In this document: positions 40,076 through 47,640 of the stretch, one piece after another
Position numbering within the stretch: position 1 is the stretch's first letter
Layout of the letters: each line of letters starts with the position of its first letter
Assembly: GCA_022641375.1 (NCBI GenBank)
Contig: JALCDF010000005.1
Location: 1 to 48,976 of the forward strand
From: Megasphaera sp.
GTDB taxonomy: Bacteria > Bacillota > Negativicutes > Veillonellales > Megasphaeraceae
Reading direction: 5' to 3'
DNA: 48,976 bases
The notes under the pieces: model-generated
What the model saw: only the letters and a program-made list of their open reading frames with translations
Databases searched by the model: none
Told to the model about the DNA's origin: nothing
Translations under genes and position numbers: made by a program

Positions 40076-41476
40076 ATGGAACAGTACAATCCAGTAACAC
40101 CGGAAGTCGTCAAAGCATTACAAGCAGCAGTAGGGGAAAAATACGTCAAGACAGACCCGGACGTATTGGCCGTATATCAGTCGGATGAAAGCCTGGCACC
40201 GTCTTTTTGGACCTTGCCGGAAGTCGTCGTATCGGCAGGCAATACAGAAGATGTAGCCAGCGTCATGCAGATCGCCAATACCTACCACGTACCGGTGACA
40301 CCGCGCAGTGCCGGTACCAGTGTCAGCTGCGGCGCCGTTCCGGCGTATCACGGCATCGTCCTGTTGATGGAACGCATGAACCATATCATCGAGCTCAATG
40401 AAGAAGGCATGTATATGACCGTAGAAGCGGGCGTGCGTACCATCGATATCCAGAATGCCGCCAAGGCCAAAGGCCTGCTCTATGCCGGCGACCCCTGCAG
40501 TTCCGACAGCTGCCTCATCGGCGGCAACCTGGCAACCAATGCCGGCGGCAATAAAGCGGTCCGCTACGGCACGACGCGCCATCAGGTCTATTCCATCGAA
40601 GTCGTCCTGCCCAGCGGCAAAGTAGCACGCCTGGGAGCGACGCTGAAGAAATGCTCGACCGGCTTCTGCCTGGATCAGCTCATCATCGGCTCCGAAGGTA
40701 CCCTGGGCATCATTACCAAAGCGACATTGAAACTCGTTCCCCTGCCGCCGTACAAACTGGATGTATTGGCTGTATTCACGGATCTGGCCAAAGCGACGGC
40801 GCTGGTACCGAAACTGGTCAAGGCCGGCTTAAATCCGACCTCGGTCGAATTCATGGACAACAACTTTGTCCGCAGCGCGTCTGATTACAGTGAACTGCGG
40901 CTGCCTCATTATGAAGACGGCTGCTATGATATTGTTTCCATTGAAACCTTCAATGAAGATGAATTGGACGATAAGATGGAAAAACTCGCGGCCATCTGCG
41001 AAGAATGCGGTGCAACGGACGTCGTCGAAGCCGATGACCGGGTCTGGAAGATTCGCCGCAACTGCCTTGAAAGCACGCGGGTATTCTCCAAAGTAGCCAC
41101 ATCAGAAGATTTGGTCGTACCGGTGACCAAGATTGCCGACTGCATCCAGCACCTCGTCCGGGAAAGCCAGAAATATGATTTCCGGGTATTCTGCCTGGCC
41201 CATGCCGGTGATGGCAATCTCCATTTCCAGATCCTGCAGTGCGATATGAATGACGAAGACTGGGAACGGGAATTACAGCAGTTCCGGGCTGTCGCCTATA
41301 AATATGTATATAATCTGGGCGGCCGTCTCTCCGGTGAACACGGTATCGGCTTGAAACGATTGGAATATATGGAACAGTATACGAATCCCGTCGAATTGGA
41401 ACTCATGAAGACCATCAAACGGGCTGTCGACCCCAACTGGATTTTGAATCCCGGCAAGGTCATCAGCGCCGATTAG
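40076..41476 (+). CDS. FAD-dependent D-lactate dehydrogenase (GlcD family)
   Basis: A 466-residue flavoprotein: N-terminal PCMH-type FAD domain (PRSAGTSVSCGAVP, PCSSDSCLIGGNLATNAGGNKAVRYG) and C-terminal FAD-oxidase domain (HAGDGNLHFQILQCD, GRLSGEHGIGLKRL). Such enzymes oxidise D-lactate or glycolate and in anaerobes often pass electrons to an ETF. Next to larA and a GntR regulator, D-lactate is the likely substrate. The start at ATG 40076 has GGGGG in front. No etf genes are adjacent. Confidence 0.88.
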   Translation: MEQYNPVTPEVVKALQAAVGEKYVKTDPDVLAVYQSDESLAPSFWTLPEVVVSAGNTEDVASVMQIANTYHVPVTPRSAGTSVSCGAVPAYHGIVLLMERMNHIIELNEEGMYMTVEAGVRTIDIQNAAKAKGLLYAGDPCSSDSCLIGGNLATNAGGNKAVRYGTTRHQVYSIEVVLPSGKVARLGATLKKCSTGFCLDQLIIGSEGTLGIITKATLKLVPLPPYKLDVLAVFTDLAKATALVPKLVKAGLNPTSVEFMDNNFVRSASDYSELRLPHYEDGCYDIVSIETFNEDELDDKMEKLAAICEECGATDVVEADDRVWKIRRNCLESTRVFSKVATSEDLVVPVTKIADCIQHLVRESQKYDFRVFCLAHAGDGNLHFQILQCDMNDEDWERELQQFRAVAYKYVYNLGGRLSGEHGIGLKRLEYMEQYTNPVELELMKTIKRAVDPNWILNPGKVISAD

Positions 41477-41486
41477 TTGTTTGTTT

Positions 41487-41516
41487 AGCCTGCAGGTATC
41501 CTTCCTGCAGGCTTTT
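41487..41516 (+). terminator. Intrinsic terminator of the lactate locus
   Basis: A perfect 10-bp stem, AGCCTGCAGG with CCTGCAGGCT, with a 7-nt loop, then TTTT. Confidence 0.93.
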
Positions 41517-41614
41517 ATACGATATGGTGGAGTTTTTGGAGCGGCTATGTTGCTATACAAGAACATGCGCTGCGGTCTCTTGCAAAATCGACAAGAGAAC
41601 CGGGGTGTTCGATA

Positions 41615-41667
41615 TATATTAATGTTGATAAATATGGTAGAATATAGAAAAGGAGGGATGTGTTATG
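41615..41667 (+). repeat. Upstream regulatory block, copy 1 of a duplicated promoter/RBS segment
   Basis: These 53 bases align without gaps with 41898-41950 (about 46 identities). They include an extended -10 (TG-G-TAGAAT), AATATAGAAAAGGAGGGAT and the ATG of the small gene. The duplication therefore covers control region and gene. Confidence 0.8.
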
Positions 41668-41841
41668 ATTAAAAAATTTAAAGAATTAAAAACGGCCTTA
41701 TCCCAGGTCAGTAAAGGATATACTGGTTGTACGACCGGCGGCTGCTGTGGGATATCCCTTCCCCCCGATGACCAGAAAGAGCTGAAGCGTATCAAACAGC
41801 AGGGGCAGGATTCCCATAAAAATGAACAGTCGAAAGAATAA
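41665..41841 (+). CDS. Small protein with C-x4-C-C motif (cysteine paralogue)
   Basis: A 58-residue protein with a strong ribosome site (AAAGGAGGG). It reads MIKKFKELKTALSQVSKGY, then TGCTTGGCCG with Cys22, Cys27 and Cys28, then LPPDDQKELKRIKQQG and a charged tail. No signal peptide or membrane helix. I do not recognise the family; the cysteine cluster suggests redox or metal binding. Its neighbour at 41948 is the same protein with TGA in place of the Cys28 codon. It is monocistronic, with its own terminator. Confidence 0.82.
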   Translation: MIKKFKELKTALSQVSKGYTGCTTGGCCGISLPPDDQKELKRIKQQGQDSHKNEQSKE

Positions 41842-41852
41842 CTTTCTCCCAT

Positions 41853-41877
41853 AGGACGCGCTTGCCGCGTCCTTTTT
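41853..41877 (+). terminator. Intrinsic terminator between the two small genes
   Basis: AGGACGCG pairs with CGCGTCCT around CTTGC, followed by T5. Confidence 0.93.
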
Positions 41878-41897
41878 CGTTACCGGGGAAGGGCGGG

Positions 41898-41950
41898 TAT
41901 ATTAATATTGACCAATATAGTATAATATAGAAAAGGAGGGATATGTCATG
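41898..41950 (+). repeat. Upstream regulatory block, copy 2
   Basis: Second copy of the 53-bp block before the TGA-containing gene. It has a consensus TATAAT (41921-41926) and a perfect dyad ATATTG-AC-CAATAT (41905-41918) placed between the -35 and -10 positions, a possible repressor site. The dyad is only partly kept in copy 1. Confidence 0.75.
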
Positions 41951-42112
41951 ATAAAAACAATAAAGGAACTGAAAACCATCCTATCCCAACTCAGTGCGGG
42001 ATATACAGGATGCACGACCGGCGGCTGCTGAGGCATGACCTTGCCACCAAAAGATCAGGATGATCTGAAACGAGTGAAAAAGCAGGGCCGGTATGCAGAG
42101 AAGAAGGAATAG
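41948..42112 (+). CDS. Probable small selenoprotein with C-x4-C-U motif (in-frame TGA at 42029-42031)
   Basis: Read through one TGA, this gene gives 54 residues: MIKTIKELKTILSQLSAGY, TGCTTGGC, U28, then GMTLPPKDQDDLKRVKKQG and a charged end, stop TAG at 42110. It aligns without gaps with the 58-residue neighbour, U28 facing Cys28. Differences between the copies are mostly silent or conservative on both sides of the TGA (after it, at least seven silent codon changes in L, P, P, D, K, R and G), so the part behind the TGA is still under selection for protein. A SECIS-like hairpin lies at 42052-42066. SelA/B/C/D genes are not in the window. The alternative, a truncated 27-residue peptide, does not explain the conserved tail. 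Confidence 0.72.
42052..42066 (+). promoter_or_regulatory. Candidate bacterial SECIS hairpin
   Basis: AGATCA (42052-42057), loop GGA, TGATCT (42061-42066): a perfect 6-bp stem inside the reading frame. The loop starts 26 nt after the TGA and begins with GG; bacterial SECIS elements have a G in the first two loop positions at about 16-37 nt. The cysteine paralogue has no such hairpin at the same place. Confidence 0.6.
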
Positions 42113-42114
42113 TT

Positions 42115-42507
42115 GTTAGTTGTTGGAAGAGCGGTTCTTGGTTCTTAAAACCAGGGGTCGCTTTTTCGCCTCACCTTCGAGGGGAGGTGGCTCCGGCATG
42201 GGCTTTGCCGGAGCCGGAGGAGTTAGCCGCAGCCCATTCTTCTGTCCGTTCAGATGTCACCATCCTATTGTTGCCGCTTTCGTCCTCAAAGAAAAGGCGC
42301 CCATATTCGTTAGGATAAGGGCGTGGGTTCGTGTCACATAGGCAAGAATGGGTTTTCTTTTCGGATTCAGCTGGCAACAGTACGGATGGTGCCAAATTCA
42401 CGGCCAGCAGAACGGGCTGCTTCGGGTTGTCGGGTGTTTTCGTTCTGCGAAGAGAGAGGTGGACAAAACAAGGATGCTGTCCACCAGTAGCAATTGCGGA
42501 GGAGAAA
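42115..42507 (+). repeat. Structured dispersed repeat, copy A
   Basis: About 393 bp, followed directly by copy B; a partial copy lies at 47340-47640. It begins with a terminator-like hairpin (AGCGGTTCTTGGTT pairing with AACCAGGGGTCGCT, then T5, about 42130-42166), which may end transcription of the small selenoprotein gene. Next come a GCTCCGGC/GCCGGAGC hairpin and, at the end, GGTGGACA/TGTCCACC followed by GCAATTGC. Open frames on either strand here are short and not convincing as ordinary genes. Confidence 0.85.
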
Positions 42508-42860
42508 GTTAGTTATTCGTTGTTGAAAGAGCGATTCTTGGTTCTTAAAACCAGGGATTGCTTTTTTCGCCTCACCTTCGAGGGGAGGTGGCTCCGGCAT
42601 GGGCTTTGCCGGAGTCGGAGGGGTTAGCCGGAGTCGGAGGGGTTAGCCGCAGCCCATTCTTCTGTCCGTTCAGATGTCACCATCCTATTGTTGCCGCTTT
42701 CGTCCTCAAAGAAAAGGCGCCCATATTTGTTAGGATAAGGGCGTGGGTTCGTGTCACATAGGCAAGAATGGGTTTTCTTTTCGGATTCAGCTGGCAACAG
42801 TACGGATGGTGCCAAATTCACGGACAGAAGAACGGGTTGCTTGGGGATGTCGAGTGTTTC
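42508..42860 (+). repeat. Structured dispersed repeat, copy B
   Basis: Tandem to copy A and nearly identical through its middle. The first hairpin is kept by wobble-compatible changes (AGCGATTCTTGGTT with AACCAGGGATTGCT). It has a private 19-bp tandem duplication (42608-42626 and 42627-42645). Similarity to copy A fades near 42860. Confidence 0.85.
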
Positions 42861-42899
42861 AAGATAATACGGAGGCGCAGCCCATTCGGATGGGAGCAG

Positions 42900-43185
42900 T
42901 TGTTAGAAGGTCGATTTTTGGTTCTTAAAAATGGTTATCCAACAACCGCATTTTAAAGAACCAATAACCAATAACCAACAACTAATTCGTCCGCCAAATG
43001 GATGGACAAAATAAGGACGCTGTCCACCAATCGCAATTGCGGAGAAGAAAGTCAGTTATTTGTTGTTAGAAGTGCGGTTCTTAGTTCTTAAAAGAAAAAA
43101 CTGATTTTTTAAGAACCAACAACAAACAACGGACTTTTCTTTTAACAACTGCCCTTCCAAGAACGAACAACTAACAACCAATGCC
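42900..43185 (+). repeat. Cluster of short palindromic repeats (GTTGTT...GGTTCTTAA family)
   Basis: Two full units, 42900-42985 and 43055-43130, each begin with a GTTGTTAGAAG-like end and GGTTCTTAAAA and close with the inverted text (AAGAACCAA...CAACAAC). A partial unit follows at 43140-43180. Between them, 42998-43056 repeats the GGACA...TGTCC hairpin module of the larger repeat. No coding potential seen. Confidence 0.75.
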
Positions 43186-43195
43186 CTTATCTATG

Positions 43196-43238
43196 AATAC
43201 ATAATGATAATATACGTATAATACTATCATTATGTATT
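43196..43238. repeat. 14-bp perfect inverted repeat
   Basis: AATACATAATGATA (43196-43209) and TATCATTATGTATT (43225-43238) around 15 AT-rich bases. The arms include ATAATGATA/TATCATTAT, which look like Fur-box halves, though the spacing is wide. Confidence 0.6.
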
Positions 43239-43260
43239 TTTATAAGTGACCATTTTATCG

Positions 43261-43321
43261 CTAAGCCATCCTTTATAGGGTATATTTTTTAGAGTGAGTA
43301 CCATGTTAATAAATGGCTTAG
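43261..43321 (+). other. Possible structured RNA closed by a 9-bp stem
   Basis: CTAAGCCAT (43261-43269) pairs with ATGGCTTAG (43313-43321) around 43 nt that hold a small CCT/AGG hairpin. A terminator-grade palindrome follows 17 bp later. No reading frame fits; a small RNA or leader is possible. Confidence 0.35.
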
Positions 43322-43337
43322 TACAGGGGATTAAAAG

Positions 43338-43387
43338 AAAAAAGAAGTTGTATTTTAAAGTATACTTTAAAATACAACTTCTTTTTT
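43338..43387. repeat. 50-bp perfect palindrome (terminator/operator)
   Basis: Arms of 25 bp meet without a loop at 43362/43363 (TGTATTTTAAAGTA and its complement at the centre). A-run on the left and T-run on the right allow termination in both directions. The central 28 bp recur at 43494-43521. Confidence 0.85.
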
Positions 43388-43490
43388 GTGAATTTAGCTC
43401 TTATCGACATTATATCTCTTTTATTTATACAATTCAAGCCCGATTTAGTTATATTTAATCATTTTTTGGCTAATCTGATAAAAATCGTCC

Positions 43491-43524
43491 AACTGTATTT
43501 TAAAGTATACTTTAAAATACAGTT
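43491..43524. promoter_or_regulatory. 34-bp perfect palindrome, probable Rrf2 operator
   Basis: Arms AACTGTATTTTAAAGTA and complement, centred at 43507/43508, about 70 bp before the Rrf2 gene. It shares a 28-bp core with the 50-bp palindrome, but without the A/T tails, so binding by a dimeric regulator is more likely than termination. Confidence 0.6.
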
Positions 43525-43592
43525 TTCGGTATTGCAAGTGAGGCATTTAGCCAAAGTGAAACGACGATATCCGTTCAGATTGGAGGTGTTCT

Positions 43593-44003
43593 ATGCAATT
43601 CAACATAACGACTGATTATGCAATACGGACCGTCTTGTTTCTGGCCATTACCAAACGATTGGCCACAGCAGCGGAGATATCCGAAGCGATGCATATTCCG
43701 AAAAATTATCAGCTGAAAGTAACCAGCCCGCTGGTAAAGAAAGGAATCCTGACCCGGATCCAGGGGGTAAAAGGAGGATTTTGTTTAGGGAAAGACAGCA
43801 AGGATATCACACTCTATGATATCGTCAGCACCATGGAGACGACGACCCATCTCAATCCTTGCTTGAAAAAAAAACAAAATGGTAATCCCTTTACGAAGAC
43901 GCCATATCCTGTGAGTGATTTCTATGAAACCATGCAGACAGATATGGAAGGGCGGTTGCAGGGGATGACCGTGGCGTTGCTGGCGAAGAATTTTAGGCAA
44001 TAA
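43593..44003 (+). CDS. Rrf2-family transcriptional regulator
   Basis: A 136-residue regulator with an Rrf2 winged helix (FNITTDYAIRTVLFLAITKRLATAAEISEAMHIPKNYQLKVTSPLVKKGILTRIQGVKGGFCL). It lacks the three-cysteine cluster of IscR or NsrR; only Cys68 and a Cys in NPCLKK are seen, so an iron-sulfur sensor is unlikely. GGAGGTG precedes the ATG. Two related palindromes upstream suggest autoregulation; the downstream autotransporter may be another target. Confidence 0.87.
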   Translation: MQFNITTDYAIRTVLFLAITKRLATAAEISEAMHIPKNYQLKVTSPLVKKGILTRIQGVKGGFCLGKDSKDITLYDIVSTMETTTHLNPCLKKKQNGNPFTKTPYPVSDFYETMQTDMEGRLQGMTVALLAKNFRQ

Positions 44004-44065: not shown

Positions 44066-44127
44066 GAAGCAGAATGTTTTTTATGAAAAATGGATGGGTA
44101 TCATTACAGTGGAGAGGAGTTTTATAC

Positions 44128-47100
44128 ATGAAGAAACAAATACGGTATTTTACAGAAGGGGTGCTTCAGCGGAAGGTATTAAAGACGTTGGTGGCCGGTA
44201 TGGCGGTATTGCCGATGGCTGCGGCGGGATCTATAGTCGAAGCATCAACTACGATAACTTCCGGTACACATGATATTGGTGGAGAATATACGATAGATCG
44301 GGATTTCGCAATGGCGACGGGAAATAATATTGTTTTGAATGGGACAGATAATGTAAAGATAACCAGTACTTCAACAGGACAAGGCTTTTTCGGTATACGA
44401 AGTGGAGGCAAAATTTCTCTTGACATGCAGGGAAATGATTTTGCTTATGAAGGAAAATACTATGGGATGAGAAGTGGAGAAATAAGTACCCCGACATCGA
44501 CGTGGAATGGAACTACTGTTATTGACAACGTCCATGATTTTGATGCTGCTATAGTAGCAAGTGGGCGTGCAAGTATTATAAGTGCATTTGCTTATGGAGA
44601 TTCTTCATTATTTGAAATTAATGCAACCGGCAAAATTAATATGGATATATCGGGATCTAATGGTACGGTAGTTGGATTATTATCATCTGGAGGGAATACA
44701 AGTAAGGTTAATCTGAATGCGGTTGGTGATATTAACATTAGTGGAGATGGTGCCCCTATATACGTTGTAACAAATAATGCTGAATGTAATGTCGATTCAA
44801 CAGAAGGAGATATCAACCTGACATCGCGAAGTCGACAGGGGGTGAGAAATAATGGCGGAACGATAAATATTAAAGGACAGACTGTCACTATTGATGCCTT
44901 GACCAAAGGCATTGATGCAAGAGGTGGTACAACGAATGTCACGGCAACAAAGGGTGATGTTACGATTGGTAACGCGACTGCCCAGGCTATTCATGCGGAA
45001 GGGACAGGCAGCGTAGATATTACCAGCGAACAGGGAAAAATCAACCTGACAGCAACCAAGACGGATGATAGTACCTATCCCAACGCCGGCATCTATACGG
45101 CCGACACGGGAGCCGTGAATCTTCATTCCGATACGGTAATCACGGCGGCAGAAAAGAGCATCGATGCAACAGGTGGTACGGTGACATTTGATAAAGCCTT
45201 GACAGCTACCGCTGCTCCGACGGCGATTGCAGCCAGCGGCGGAGCCGTGGTGACGGCAACGGATAGTGCTACGGATAAACAGATAGCCGGTACGATTACG
45301 GCTGATGGTAGTGGAACGGCTGTCAATGTAGATTTCCCGACGTCCGCTTCGTATTTTACGGGTTCGACGGATGTGACTAATGATGGGGCAGTCAATCTGG
45401 GATTTTCTAATCATTCCATCTGGAACCTGACGGCAGACAGCAAGCTGACATCGCTGGATAATACGAACAGCACCATCAACATGCATTATACTGGTGATGA
45501 TACGTATGAAACGATTACGACCGATACGTACAGCGGTAGCAATGGGACACTGCTCATGGATACGGATCTGGCCAGTGAAACGAACGGCGACAAATTATAC
45601 ATCAATAACAGCGGTGCAGGCGGCGGTACCATTCAGGTCTTCGATAAGAGCCTGAACAGTGGCACGAAGGTCAATGCCAAAGATGATTGGACGAAGACGA
45701 AATTGCTCCTCGTCGGCGGTAACGGTGCTGACGGGACAACATGGACGGGGCAGACCCTCGATACAGGCGGCCTGTGGGAACTGACACCGACGGTAGAAAA
45801 GCTGGAAGATAACCAGTGGTACCTGACGATGATGAAACGGTCTGCTAATCCCAGCACGAAGACCATCATGGGGTCCCTGGATTCGGCATATGGCCTCTGG
45901 CGTTATGATGATACGTTGCGCAAGCGCCTGGGTGATCTGCGCTATATCGATAACGACCAGAACGGTCTTTGGGTGCGCCTGAAAGCAGGCAAGCTGGCTG
46001 CTGATTCCTATGACGGTAATTATCAGATGTATCAGATCGGTTACGATAAAAAATCGGACAACACGATTTATGGCATCGCTGTAGATCACAGTAAGGCCAG
46101 CAACGATTACTATGCCGGTGATGGCGATAACTCCATGACCAACCTGACGTTGTATGCGACGAACTATCGGGGCGGCGTGGATGTGAAGAACCAGAAGAGC
46201 GGTTCGACGTACAGCGATTTGGTATTACGGGCTGGCAGACTGCAGAGCAATGTGGACAGCTATGGCACATACCATGATTCCCTCGGCTATGATACATGGG
46301 GCTACAACATCAGTTACGAAATGGGCAAGACCTTCCGCAATGACAACGGCTGGTTCATCGAACCGGAAGCGCAGCTGTCCTATGGCAGATTGCGTGGCGG
46401 CGATTACACGACACAGCGGGGCACCCATGTCCATAAAGATGACATCGACAGCCTGTTAGGGCGTATCGGCTTCGTAGCTGGCCGCAAGATTAACGATGAC
46501 AAGGATTTCTACTTCAAAGCGAATGTCTATCGTGAATTTGCCGGTGACGGCGATATGCGCTTTGTCCATGGGGACCAGACGATGCTGGATGATGTATCGA
46601 ATCGTGATACATGGTTTGAAATGGGCGTTGGTGGCAATATTCGGTTGGCAAACGATACCTATATGTACGGTGACGTATTGAAGACCTTTGGGGCCGACAT
46701 CAATAAAAAATGGCAGGTCAATCTCGGCCTGCGCTGGGCCTTTGGCGGACCGAAGAAAGAAAAGGCCGTCGAACCGGCTCCGGTCGTTGTAGAACCCACA
46801 CCGGTCCCGGCACCGGCTCCCGTACGGGAAACGTATGTAGACAGCGTACACTTTGATTTTGATGTGGATACGCCGAAAGCAGAAGAAATGCATAAGATTG
46901 ATCAGTTTGCCAAGGCAGCCAAGGCCAACCCAGACCGTACCTATGCCGTCGTAGGCAATACGGATAGCGTCGGTACCGATGAATACAACCTGGCGTTATC
47001 GCAGCGGCGTGCGGAAAACGTCAAAGCCGAAGCTGAAAAACGCGGCGTCCCGGCAGCACAGATGCAGGAATCCTATCTGGGGAAAGCCAAACCGGTAGAA

Positions 47101-47181
47101 AGCAACGATACCGATCAGGGACGGGCAGCGAACCGCCGTGTCGATATCTATGAACATCAGACTGACACAACGGTACAATAA
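44128..47181 (+). CDS. Autotransporter with outer-membrane barrel and C-terminal OmpA-like domain
   Basis: A 1017-residue protein. A long signal peptide (basic start, hydrophobic VLKTLVAGMAVLPMAAAG, cleavage near residue 40) leads to a passenger of repetitive beta-strand text (about 40-570; NVTATKGDVTIGNATAQAI, GTGSVDITSEQGKINLTATK). A beta-barrel follows (about 580-873), ending WQVNLGLRWAF, the usual C-terminal barrel signal. Beyond it lie a Pro/Val/Glu linker and an OmpA-like peptidoglycan-binding domain (about 905-1010; GNTDSVGTDEYNLALSQRRAENV, NRRVDIYE). GAGGAG selects ATG 44128 over the upstream 44074. The first third of the passenger (to about 44950) is more AT-rich than the rest. Confidence 0.88.
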   Translation: MKKQIRYFTEGVLQRKVLKTLVAGMAVLPMAAAGSIVEASTTITSGTHDIGGEYTIDRDFAMATGNNIVLNGTDNVKITSTSTGQGFFGIRSGGKISLDMQGNDFAYEGKYYGMRSGEISTPTSTWNGTTVIDNVHDFDAAIVASGRASIISAFAYGDSSLFEINATGKINMDISGSNGTVVGLLSSGGNTSKVNLNAVGDINISGDGAPIYVVTNNAECNVDSTEGDINLTSRSRQGVRNNGGTINIKGQTVTIDALTKGIDARGGTTNVTATKGDVTIGNATAQAIHAEGTGSVDITSEQGKINLTATKTDDSTYPNAGIYTADTGAVNLHSDTVITAAEKSIDATGGTVTFDKALTATAAPTAIAASGGAVVTATDSATDKQIAGTITADGSGTAVNVDFPTSASYFTGSTDVTNDGAVNLGFSNHSIWNLTADSKLTSLDNTNSTINMHYTGDDTYETITTDTYSGSNGTLLMDTDLASETNGDKLYINNSGAGGGTIQVFDKSLNSGTKVNAKDDWTKTKLLLVGGNGADGTTWTGQTLDTGGLWELTPTVEKLEDNQWYLTMMKRSANPSTKTIMGSLDSAYGLWRYDDTLRKRLGDLRYIDNDQNGLWVRLKAGKLAADSYDGNYQMYQIGYDKKSDNTIYGIAVDHSKASNDYYAGDGDNSMTNLTLYATNYRGGVDVKNQKSGSTYSDLVLRAGRLQSNVDSYGTYHDSLGYDTWGYNISYEMGKTFRNDNGWFIEPEAQLSYGRLRGGDYTTQRGTHVHKDDIDSLLGRIGFVAGRKINDDKDFYFKANVYREFAGDGDMRFVHGDQTMLDDVSNRDTWFEMGVGGNIRLANDTYMYGDVLKTFGADINKKWQVNLGLRWAFGGPKKEKAVEPAPVVVEPTPVPAPAPVRETYVDSVHFDFDVDTPKAEEMHKIDQFAKAAKANPDRTYAVVGNTDSVGTDEYNLALSQRRAENVKAEAEKRGVPAAQMQESYLGKAKPVESNDTDQGRAANRRVDIYEHQTDTTVQ

Positions 47182-47339: not shown

Positions 47340-47640
47340 GTAGAGGAAGCCGCAACCCATTCCCCTGTCCGTTCAGATGTCACCATCCTATTGTTGCCGC
47401 TTTTGTCCTCAAAGAAAAGGCGCCCATATTCGTTAGGATAAGGGCGTGGGTTCGTGTCACATGGCAAGAATGGGTTTTCTTTTCGGACTTTAGCTGGCAA
47501 CAGTACGGATGGTGCCAAATTCACGGCCAGCAGAACGGGCTGCTTCGGAATGTCGGGTGTTTTCGTTCTGCGAAGATAGAGGTGGACAAAACAAGGACGC
47601 TGTTCACCAGTAGCAATTGCGGAGAGGAAAATCAGTCCTT
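47340..47640 (+). repeat. Structured dispersed repeat, partial copy C
   Basis: Matches the middle and end of copies A and B, including CTGTCCGTTCAGATGTCACC, the CGCCC/GGGCG hairpin, the GGTGGACA/TGTTCACC stem and GCAATTGC. The initial terminator hairpin is missing; the autotransporter terminator stands in its place. Two compensating single-base indels relative to A and B fall near 47460-47495. The rest of 47285-47339 holds only another fragment of the GGTGGACA module. Confidence 0.82.

What the first reader, a model, noticed from the sequence alone, without database searches (positions are those of the whole stretch)
41948..42112. Probable unrecognised miniature selenoprotein with a C-x4-C-U motif
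Seen: a 54-codon gene carries TGA exactly where its tandem paralogue has the Cys28 codon TGT, inside TGCTTGGC-(C/U)-G. The frame stays open and conserved for 26 residues after the TGA, with mostly silent or conservative differences, which a pseudogene would not show. A 6-bp hairpin with a GG-starting loop lies 26 nt after the TGA and is absent from the cysteine copy. Known: Cys/Sec exchange between homologues and a hairpin at this distance are the two standard marks of a bacterial selenoprotein. Inferred: the Cys-Sec pair may form a selenenylsulfide redox site or bind metal. Gene finders would miss it, since it is short and interrupted.
Basis: partly seen in the sequence, partly recalled or inferred. 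Interest (0 to 1): 0.88.

Follow-up and report, generated by a model that had tools for sequence, protein, structure and literature searches.

The report
Possible new tiny selenium-containing protein
A Megasphaera-like bacterium carries two side-by-side copies of a tiny protein gene, and in one copy the code for a conserved cysteine is replaced by a signal that, in an organism equipped to read it that way, probably inserts the rare selenium amino acid selenocysteine, although a freshly broken gene copy cannot yet be ruled out.

Summary
Window 41948-42112 is a 54-codon frame with one in-frame TGA (42029-42031) exactly where its tandem paralogue (41665-41841) has Cys28. The genome, a 79%-complete draft grouped with Megasphaera, has selA, selB, selC and selD, and TGA-bearing selD, grdA and grdB, so UGA recoding is available. 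Position 28 is Cys in all 14 other family genes found, inside an invariant GGC-C-G. A 6-bp hairpin with loop GGA, 26 nt after the TGA, meets all four published bacterial-SECIS constraints and resembles grdB's element. Against: only this gene has TGA; the loose SECIS model fits 21% of random codons; 11% of synonymous versions of the same residues have the strict hairpin; its spacing is longer than in selD and grdB (18-20 nt); and the TGA copy seems to have evolved somewhat faster. Old divergence (Ks about 0.8-1.4) with the invariant residues kept means that, if the TGA is simply a nonsense mutation, it is recent. Best reading: a new ~6-kDa selenoprotein with a vicinal Cys-Sec pair (about 0.6); main rival: freshly broken duplicate (about 0.33).

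The parts
41948..42112 (+). copy 2: 54-codon frame with in-frame TGA, ends at TAG
42029..42031 (+). TGA codon 28, putative Sec-UGA, aligned with the invariant second Cys of the family
42052..42066 (+). putative bacterial SECIS hairpin AGATCA-GGA-TGATCT; loop GGA at 42058-42060, 26 nt between TGA and loop
41934..41939 (+). AGGAGG ribosome-binding site of copy 2, same sequence before copy 1
   Evidence: read directly
41898..41947 (+). upstream region of copy 2, 43 of 50 nt identical with 41615-41664 upstream of copy 1
41665..41841 (+). copy 1: tandem cysteine paralogue, 58 aa, TGT at 41746-41748
41853..41873 (+). terminator-like hairpin after copy 1; none was found on the + strand after copy 2 up to 42250 (simple scan; 0.7 such sites expected by chance in the region)
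42110..42166 (+). start of an intergenic repeat lying flush against, and possibly supplying, the TAG stop of copy 2

Best explanation
Copy 2 encodes a 54-residue selenoprotein. After tandem duplication of a small Megasphaera-family protein with an invariant vicinal Cys-Cys pair (GGCCG), codon 28 of the second copy became TGA and is decoded as selenocysteine by SelB and tRNA-Sec, helped by the hairpin at 42052-42066 acting as a SECIS element. The product is probably two helices joined by a TGGC-Sec-G loop; the Cys27-Sec28 pair would act as a reactive selenenylsulfide/selenol-thiol site (redox, or soft-metal or metalloid binding), next to a cysteine-only sibling with a near-identical upstream region. 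Shown: TGA position, open frame, Sec machinery genes, hairpin, family conservation. Inferred: actual Sec insertion, the fold and the chemistry.
For: Genes for the whole Sec machinery plus selD, grdA and grdB with in-frame TGA in the same genome; 12 of the 15 genomes of the genus have a selD with TGA at the Sec position. Position 28 is Cys in 14 of 14 other family genes; of 26 single-base routes to a stop in the copy one falls on codon 28, and of 6 routes to TGA one. The hairpin meets all four constraints of the bacterial SECIS model quoted in PMC13188914 and is built like that of grdB (unbroken Watson-Crick stem, 3-nt loop, GGT there and GGA here). 0 of 14 Cys members have a hairpin of 5 or more Watson-Crick pairs with a GG-starting loop there. 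The GAT codon 39 that completes the stem is in none of the 14. No other lesion: start, ribosome-binding site, upstream region and frame are intact, and the 8 other residues invariant in the Cys genes are kept on both sides of the TGA. Nei-Gojobori Ks about 1.4 against dN about 0.22 over the gene.
Against: One gene in one draft genome; 0 of 14 other family genes has TGA at this codon and no other strain could be examined. The loose SECIS model fits 20.6% of sampled codons, and 11% of synonymous versions of the same residues have the strict hairpin. Stems are common in this stretch: 8 of 14 Cys genes have some hairpin of 5 or more Watson-Crick pairs, three related ones with a G-starting loop (GCC). 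All 12 selD elements and grdB have 7-bp stems 18-20 nt after the TGA; the candidate has 6 bp at 26 nt. Copy 1 and copy 2 differ at 4 of 23 residues before and 7 of 18 after codon 28, whereas 91 Cys-Cys pairs average a post/pre ratio of 0.72; copy 2 has the longer end branch (0.38 against 0.064, in a poorly resolved 42-column tree that does not even group the two copies). A repeat abuts the stop codon.
Confidence: 0.6

Rival explanations
1. Recent nonsense mutation: the second tandem copy was functional with Cys28 until lately, and a single-base change has just made it a pseudogene or a 27-residue fragment; the hairpin is a chance product of the codons for K-D-Q-D-D-L.
For: A Cys sibling makes copy 2 dispensable. 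No relative shares the TGA. The post-TGA part, and copy 2 as a whole, look somewhat faster evolving. The strict hairpin has an 11% chance given the residues.
Against: It needs the nonsense change to fall on the invariant cysteine (1 of 26 routes) and a SECIS-like hairpin at a permitted distance. With no further stop and no change at eight invariant residues, neutral decay longer than 0.12 substitutions per site has P below 0.05 on a uniform model, i.e. at most the last 17% (Ks 1.4) or 31% (Ks 0.8) of the copy's own branch. No broken gene was noticed in the window, though this was not tested gene by gene (44 ORFs of 80 or more codons listed, some of them doubtful, and two long gaps looked into).
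Confidence: 0.33
2. Sequencing or assembly error in a draft genome created the TGA.
For: G000 is a 73-contig draft, 79% complete; the call rests on one base and I saw no reads.
Against: The base is not in a homopolymer; no other disrupted gene was noticed in the window. A random error would be unlikely to hit this codon.
Confidence: 0.04
3. Use of the TGA in another way: a regulated 27-residue peptide, or low-level near-cognate readthrough giving another residue.
For: The peptide would end in ...TTGGC and keep the first predicted helix (low confidence).
Against: The 14 other family genes continue through the loop and the second part; nothing points to readthrough other than Sec, while a Sec system is present.
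Confidence: 0.03

Closest known systems
Glycine reductase selenoprotein B (grdB) of the same genome
   Same: In-frame TGA followed by an unbroken Watson-Crick stem with a 3-nt loop starting GG.
   Different: Large enzyme subunit with a UxxC-type motif; 7-bp stem, loop starting 19 nt after the TGA rather than 27.
Known CU-motif selenoprotein families listed in PMC13188914 Table 1 (KCU-star/DUF466 protein, SaoL, SaoC, SaoB, HgcA, MbdU, CopZ-like form 2)
   Same: Adjacent Cys-Sec pair by the table's motif column; several are metal-associated by name.
   Different: Three members of our family, the TGA copy included, match no NCBIfam model up to E 10 (I did not check that each listed family is in that library, and weak matches may be filtered out); ours is a 54-residue GGCUG protein.
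Small GGCCG protein of Megasphaera and a sister genus (unnamed; 14 cysteine genes found here)
   Same: It is the parent family: 37-69% identity to the TGA copy among the 8 members aligned, lengths 51-59 aa, same invariant residues.
   Different: All 14 have Cys at position 28 and none a GG-loop hairpin after it.

Membership tests
Bacterial selenoprotein gene | Sec machinery (SelA, SelB, tRNA-Sec, SelD) in the genome | tested here: met
   all four over the curated cut-offs
Bacterial selenoprotein gene | In-frame TGA aligned with a conserved Cys of homologues | tested here: met
   14 of 14 homologues have Cys
Bacterial selenoprotein gene | bSECIS: loop 3-9 nt, stem 4-16 bp, G in the first two loop positions, 16-37 nt spacing, MFE at most -7.5 (as printed in the Fig. 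2 legend of PMC13188914) | tested here: met
   GGA, 6 bp, 26 nt, -10.9. Controls on the same loose test: 12 of 12 selD sites, grdB 1 of 1 and grdA 0 of 1, 1 of 14 Cys homologues, 39 of 230 Cys codons and 1,233 of 6,000 sampled codons; so passing it is weak evidence by itself
Bacterial selenoprotein gene | TGA retained in more than one genome, or constraint downstream after the TGA arose | tested here: inconclusive
   TGA in 1 of 15 family genes; downstream constraint is real but may predate the TGA
Bacterial selenoprotein gene | Selenium shown in the product | not testable with these tools
   needs 75Se labelling or mass spectrometry
Previously listed selenoprotein families | Match to a described family | tested here: not met
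   NCBIfam 0 families up to E 10; Pfam one sub-threshold hit, Zn_ribbon_9, 14.2 bits against a cut-off of 29.1; no evident counterpart in the table of 119 families and subfamilies read
Pseudogene | Additional lesions or loss of constrained residues | tested here: not met
   one TGA only, the 8 other invariant residues kept, though V15, shared by 12 or more of the 14 Cys genes, is L; a very recent pseudogene would also fail this test

The most novel reading that the evidence does not exclude
A previously undescribed family of about 6-kDa selenoproteins in Megasphaera, born by tandem duplication of a lineage-restricted GGCCG protein and conversion of one residue of its vicinal Cys pair to Sec, with the SECIS stem built within the coding sequence of the new copy: a Cys copy and a Sec copy side by side under near-identical upstream sequences.
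Probability: 0.58. Interest if true: 0.66.

Novelty: new member of a known kind. Interest (0 to 1): 0.55.

Why it matters
Cys-to-Sec conversion is inferred for many bacterial families (PMC1794560, passages), mostly by comparing genes of different organisms. Two tandem paralogues in one genome, one Cys and one Sec, would be a compact natural experiment for asking what selenium adds and how a SECIS element arises within coding sequence. It would also suggest that selenoprotein inventories miss genes this short, which standard gene finders end at the TGA.

Tried and rejected
Considered and rejected: (1) Other Sec members of the family: none among 15 genomes of the genus, 17 of the family, 61 of the order, 300 sampled of the class and 398 sampled of the phylum, in searches that read through stops; rows flagged 'stop inside' in congeners are ordinary C-terminal stops. 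The one hit outside the bacterial family (G440, E 3.5e-4) lies antisense to a 307-aa ORF that I take, from recall, for a chain-length (Wzz-type) gene, and I call it chance. Six weak congener hits (E 0.10 to 0.46) and the G000 C19 hit (E 0.15, with a TGA) were dropped without further study. One chance DNA pattern match at window 20686 was dropped from family counts. (2) Function from neighbours: in six genomes (G002, G004, G006, G007, G010, G011) the gene lies beside a ThiS-ThiF fusion gene, but G000, G001, G012 and G013 have the small gene and no such gene at E 1e-20, so it is no obligatory partner. (3) Viral contigs gave no relative, but that scan, like the genome-contig scan, looks for a pattern with two cysteine codons and cannot see TGA forms; plasmids, PDB sequences (one hit, E 0.71) and Rfam (30 matches over 41450-43600, none over its gathering score and none on the candidate) gave nothing relevant. 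The phage collection was not searched. (4) The predicted structure is of low confidence (pLDDT 61, pTM 0.27), so no fold search was made. (5) Literature: the listings showed no title or abstract start about this protein. PMC13188914 was seen in passages and in section 7 parts 1 and 2 of 3; PMC12013277 and PMC1794560 in passages only; all other papers as listings only.

Full report
What is there. The window lies in G000, a draft genome (1.69 Mb, 73 contigs, 79% complete). At 41948-42112 a 54-codon frame with an AGGAGG ribosome-binding site carries a single in-frame TGA at codon 28. Its tandem paralogue at 41665-41841 has TGT there. The repeat covers 216 nt at 75% identity, and the 50 nt upstream of each start match at 43 of 50 positions. 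That the two are a tandem duplication rests on this DNA likeness and on their 69% identity (42-53% between copy 1 and the ten other members); the tree does not resolve it.

Is the organism able to read TGA as Sec? Yes, as far as genes can tell. tRNA-Sec is on contig 69 (69.1 bits, cut-off 47; ARAGORN anticodon TCA). selB (355.4 bits, cut-off 242.25) and selA (619.5 bits, cut-off 267.9) are adjacent on contig 36. selD is on contig 16 (384.8 bits, cut-off 125) and has its own TGA in MASCSG-U-GAK. Upstream of selB/selA the same contig has frames that I identify, from recall of their sequences, as grdA (CFVU) and grdB (TSTUGTC), each with an in-frame TGA. Of 15 genomes of the genus, 12 have selB over the cut-off, and 12 have a selD with TGA at the Sec position.

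The family. A profile of 12 members (A2) found 15 genes in 14 genomes: 13 of the 15 held genomes of the genus and 1 of 2 of a sister genus. It found no believable member elsewhere in 61 genomes of the order, 300 of the class and 398 of the phylum. Pfam has no hit over its cut-off and NCBIfam none at all for the members scanned (two and three proteins). In the 14 genes without TGA at codon 28, residues G18, G25, G26, C27, C28, G29, P33, L40 and K44 are invariant over codons 5-46. The TGA copy keeps the other eight. That may be a single event in the history of the group, and two of the four genomes are only about 80% complete.

The hairpin. AGATCA-GGA-TGATCT sits 26 nt behind the TGA. A 2026 review (PMC13188914; passages) gives the bacterial SECIS constraints as: loop 3-9 nt, upper stem 4-16 bp, a G in the first two loop positions, 16-37 nt spacing, and MFE at most -7.5. 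The candidate meets all of them (GGA, 6 bp, 26 nt, -10.9). As positive controls, 12 of 12 TGA-bearing selD genes of the genus and the grdB site pass, while grdA fails. grdB is the closest likeness: an unbroken stem with loop GGT. But the selD and grdB elements all have 7-bp stems with 18-20 nt spacing, so the candidate sits further from its TGA than the genome's other elements. As negative controls, 1,233 of 6,000 codons sampled from larger ORFs of this genome pass the loose test, but only 0.75% have a stem of 6 or more pairs with a loop starting GG. Among 230 Cys codons 39 pass, and 4 have a stem of 5 or more with GG. Among the 14 Cys family genes 1 passes (4 bp, GCGA) and none has GG. Stems as such are common in this stretch: 8 of the 14 Cys genes have some hairpin of 5 or more Watson-Crick pairs, three of them with a loop starting with G (GCC). 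With a plain Watson-Crick count the strict hairpin occurs at 48 of 15,701 codon positions (45 ORFs of 150 or more codons from three contigs, some perhaps spurious). Against this stands a sharper control: keeping the encoded residues and drawing codons by the usage of four window ORFs, 2,202 of 20,000 versions (11%) have a strict hairpin. The hairpin therefore counts for something but does not settle the case. The GAT codon at 39 that completes the stem is found in none of the 14 Cys genes, whereas Asp38 is shared with G001 and G013.

Selection. Ks between the copies is 1.4 by Nei-Gojobori and 0.8 by YN00; Nei-Gojobori dN is 0.13 before the TGA and 0.28 to 0.33 after it. Differences in codons 29-47 fall 6/0/13 on codon positions 1/2/3. 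Both parts have been under constraint for most of the time since duplication. On a uniform neutral model, the lack of any further stop or change at eight invariant residues puts a free-decay period above 0.12 substitutions per site at P below 0.05, i.e. at most 17% (NG86) or 31% (YN00) of the copy's own branch. A nonsense mutation younger than that cannot be excluded. Pointing the other way, the part behind codon 28 differs more between the copies (7 of 18) than the part before it (4 of 23), whereas in 91 Cys-Cys pairs the mean ratio is 0.72. The TGA copy lies only 0 to 3 residues further from the 13 outgroups than the Cys copy in that part, yet has the longer end branch in a weak tree. Relaxed constraint, or reshaping of the codons to build a SECIS stem, would both give this.

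Weighing. A nonsense change falling by chance on this codon is 1 of 26 one-step routes. The hairpin adds a factor that I judge (not compute) at between about 4 and 50, depending on which null is used. Prior odds favour an ordinary nonsense mutation, because such mutations are commoner than new selenoprotein families (judgement). My resulting figure is about 0.6 for a selenoprotein, 0.33 for a recent pseudogene, and the rest for error or other uses.

How it would work. The fold model (low confidence: pLDDT 61, pTM 0.27) has helices at 2-20 and 34-52, with the TGGC-U-G loop between. A vicinal Cys-Sec pair in a flexible glycine-rich loop would suit a selenenylsulfide redox site or soft-metal capture; this is inference. 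The review's table of 119 families and subfamilies contains other CU-motif selenoproteins, several of them metal-linked by name, but no evident counterpart of this one. PMC1794560 (passages) argues that most rare bacterial selenoproteins arose from Cys ancestors, which is the route proposed here.

Noticed in passing
window 42110-43110 and 47343-47636: Intergenic repeats: a 294-nt element in three copies (42220, 42640, 47343) and a 57-nt element starting exactly at the TAG stop of copy 2, so the repeat may have supplied that stop and removed a terminator like that of copy 1.
   Followed up: partly
window 43349-43376 and 43494-43521: Two identical copies of a 28-nt palindrome TGTATTTTAAAGTATACTTTAAAATACA upstream of an Rrf2-family regulator gene at 43593-44003; perhaps an operator.
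   Followed up: no
L075, L077, L078, L079, L081, L082: In six relatives the cysteine form of the small gene lies beside a ThiS-ThiF fusion gene, in five of them with genes that look like nrdD and nrdG (recalled, not searched) on the other side; the carriers in which no fusion gene was found are exactly those with the extra Cys22.
   Followed up: partly
G001 selD (L091 and L099): One congener has two selD copies over the cut-off, one with TGA and one without: another Sec/non-Sec pair within one genome. G001 and G011 also each have two selB over the cut-off.
   Followed up: no
window 44074-47181: 1035-residue protein that looks, from its sequence alone, like an autotransporter-type outer-membrane protein with an OmpA-like C-terminus (recalled, not searched).
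   Followed up: no
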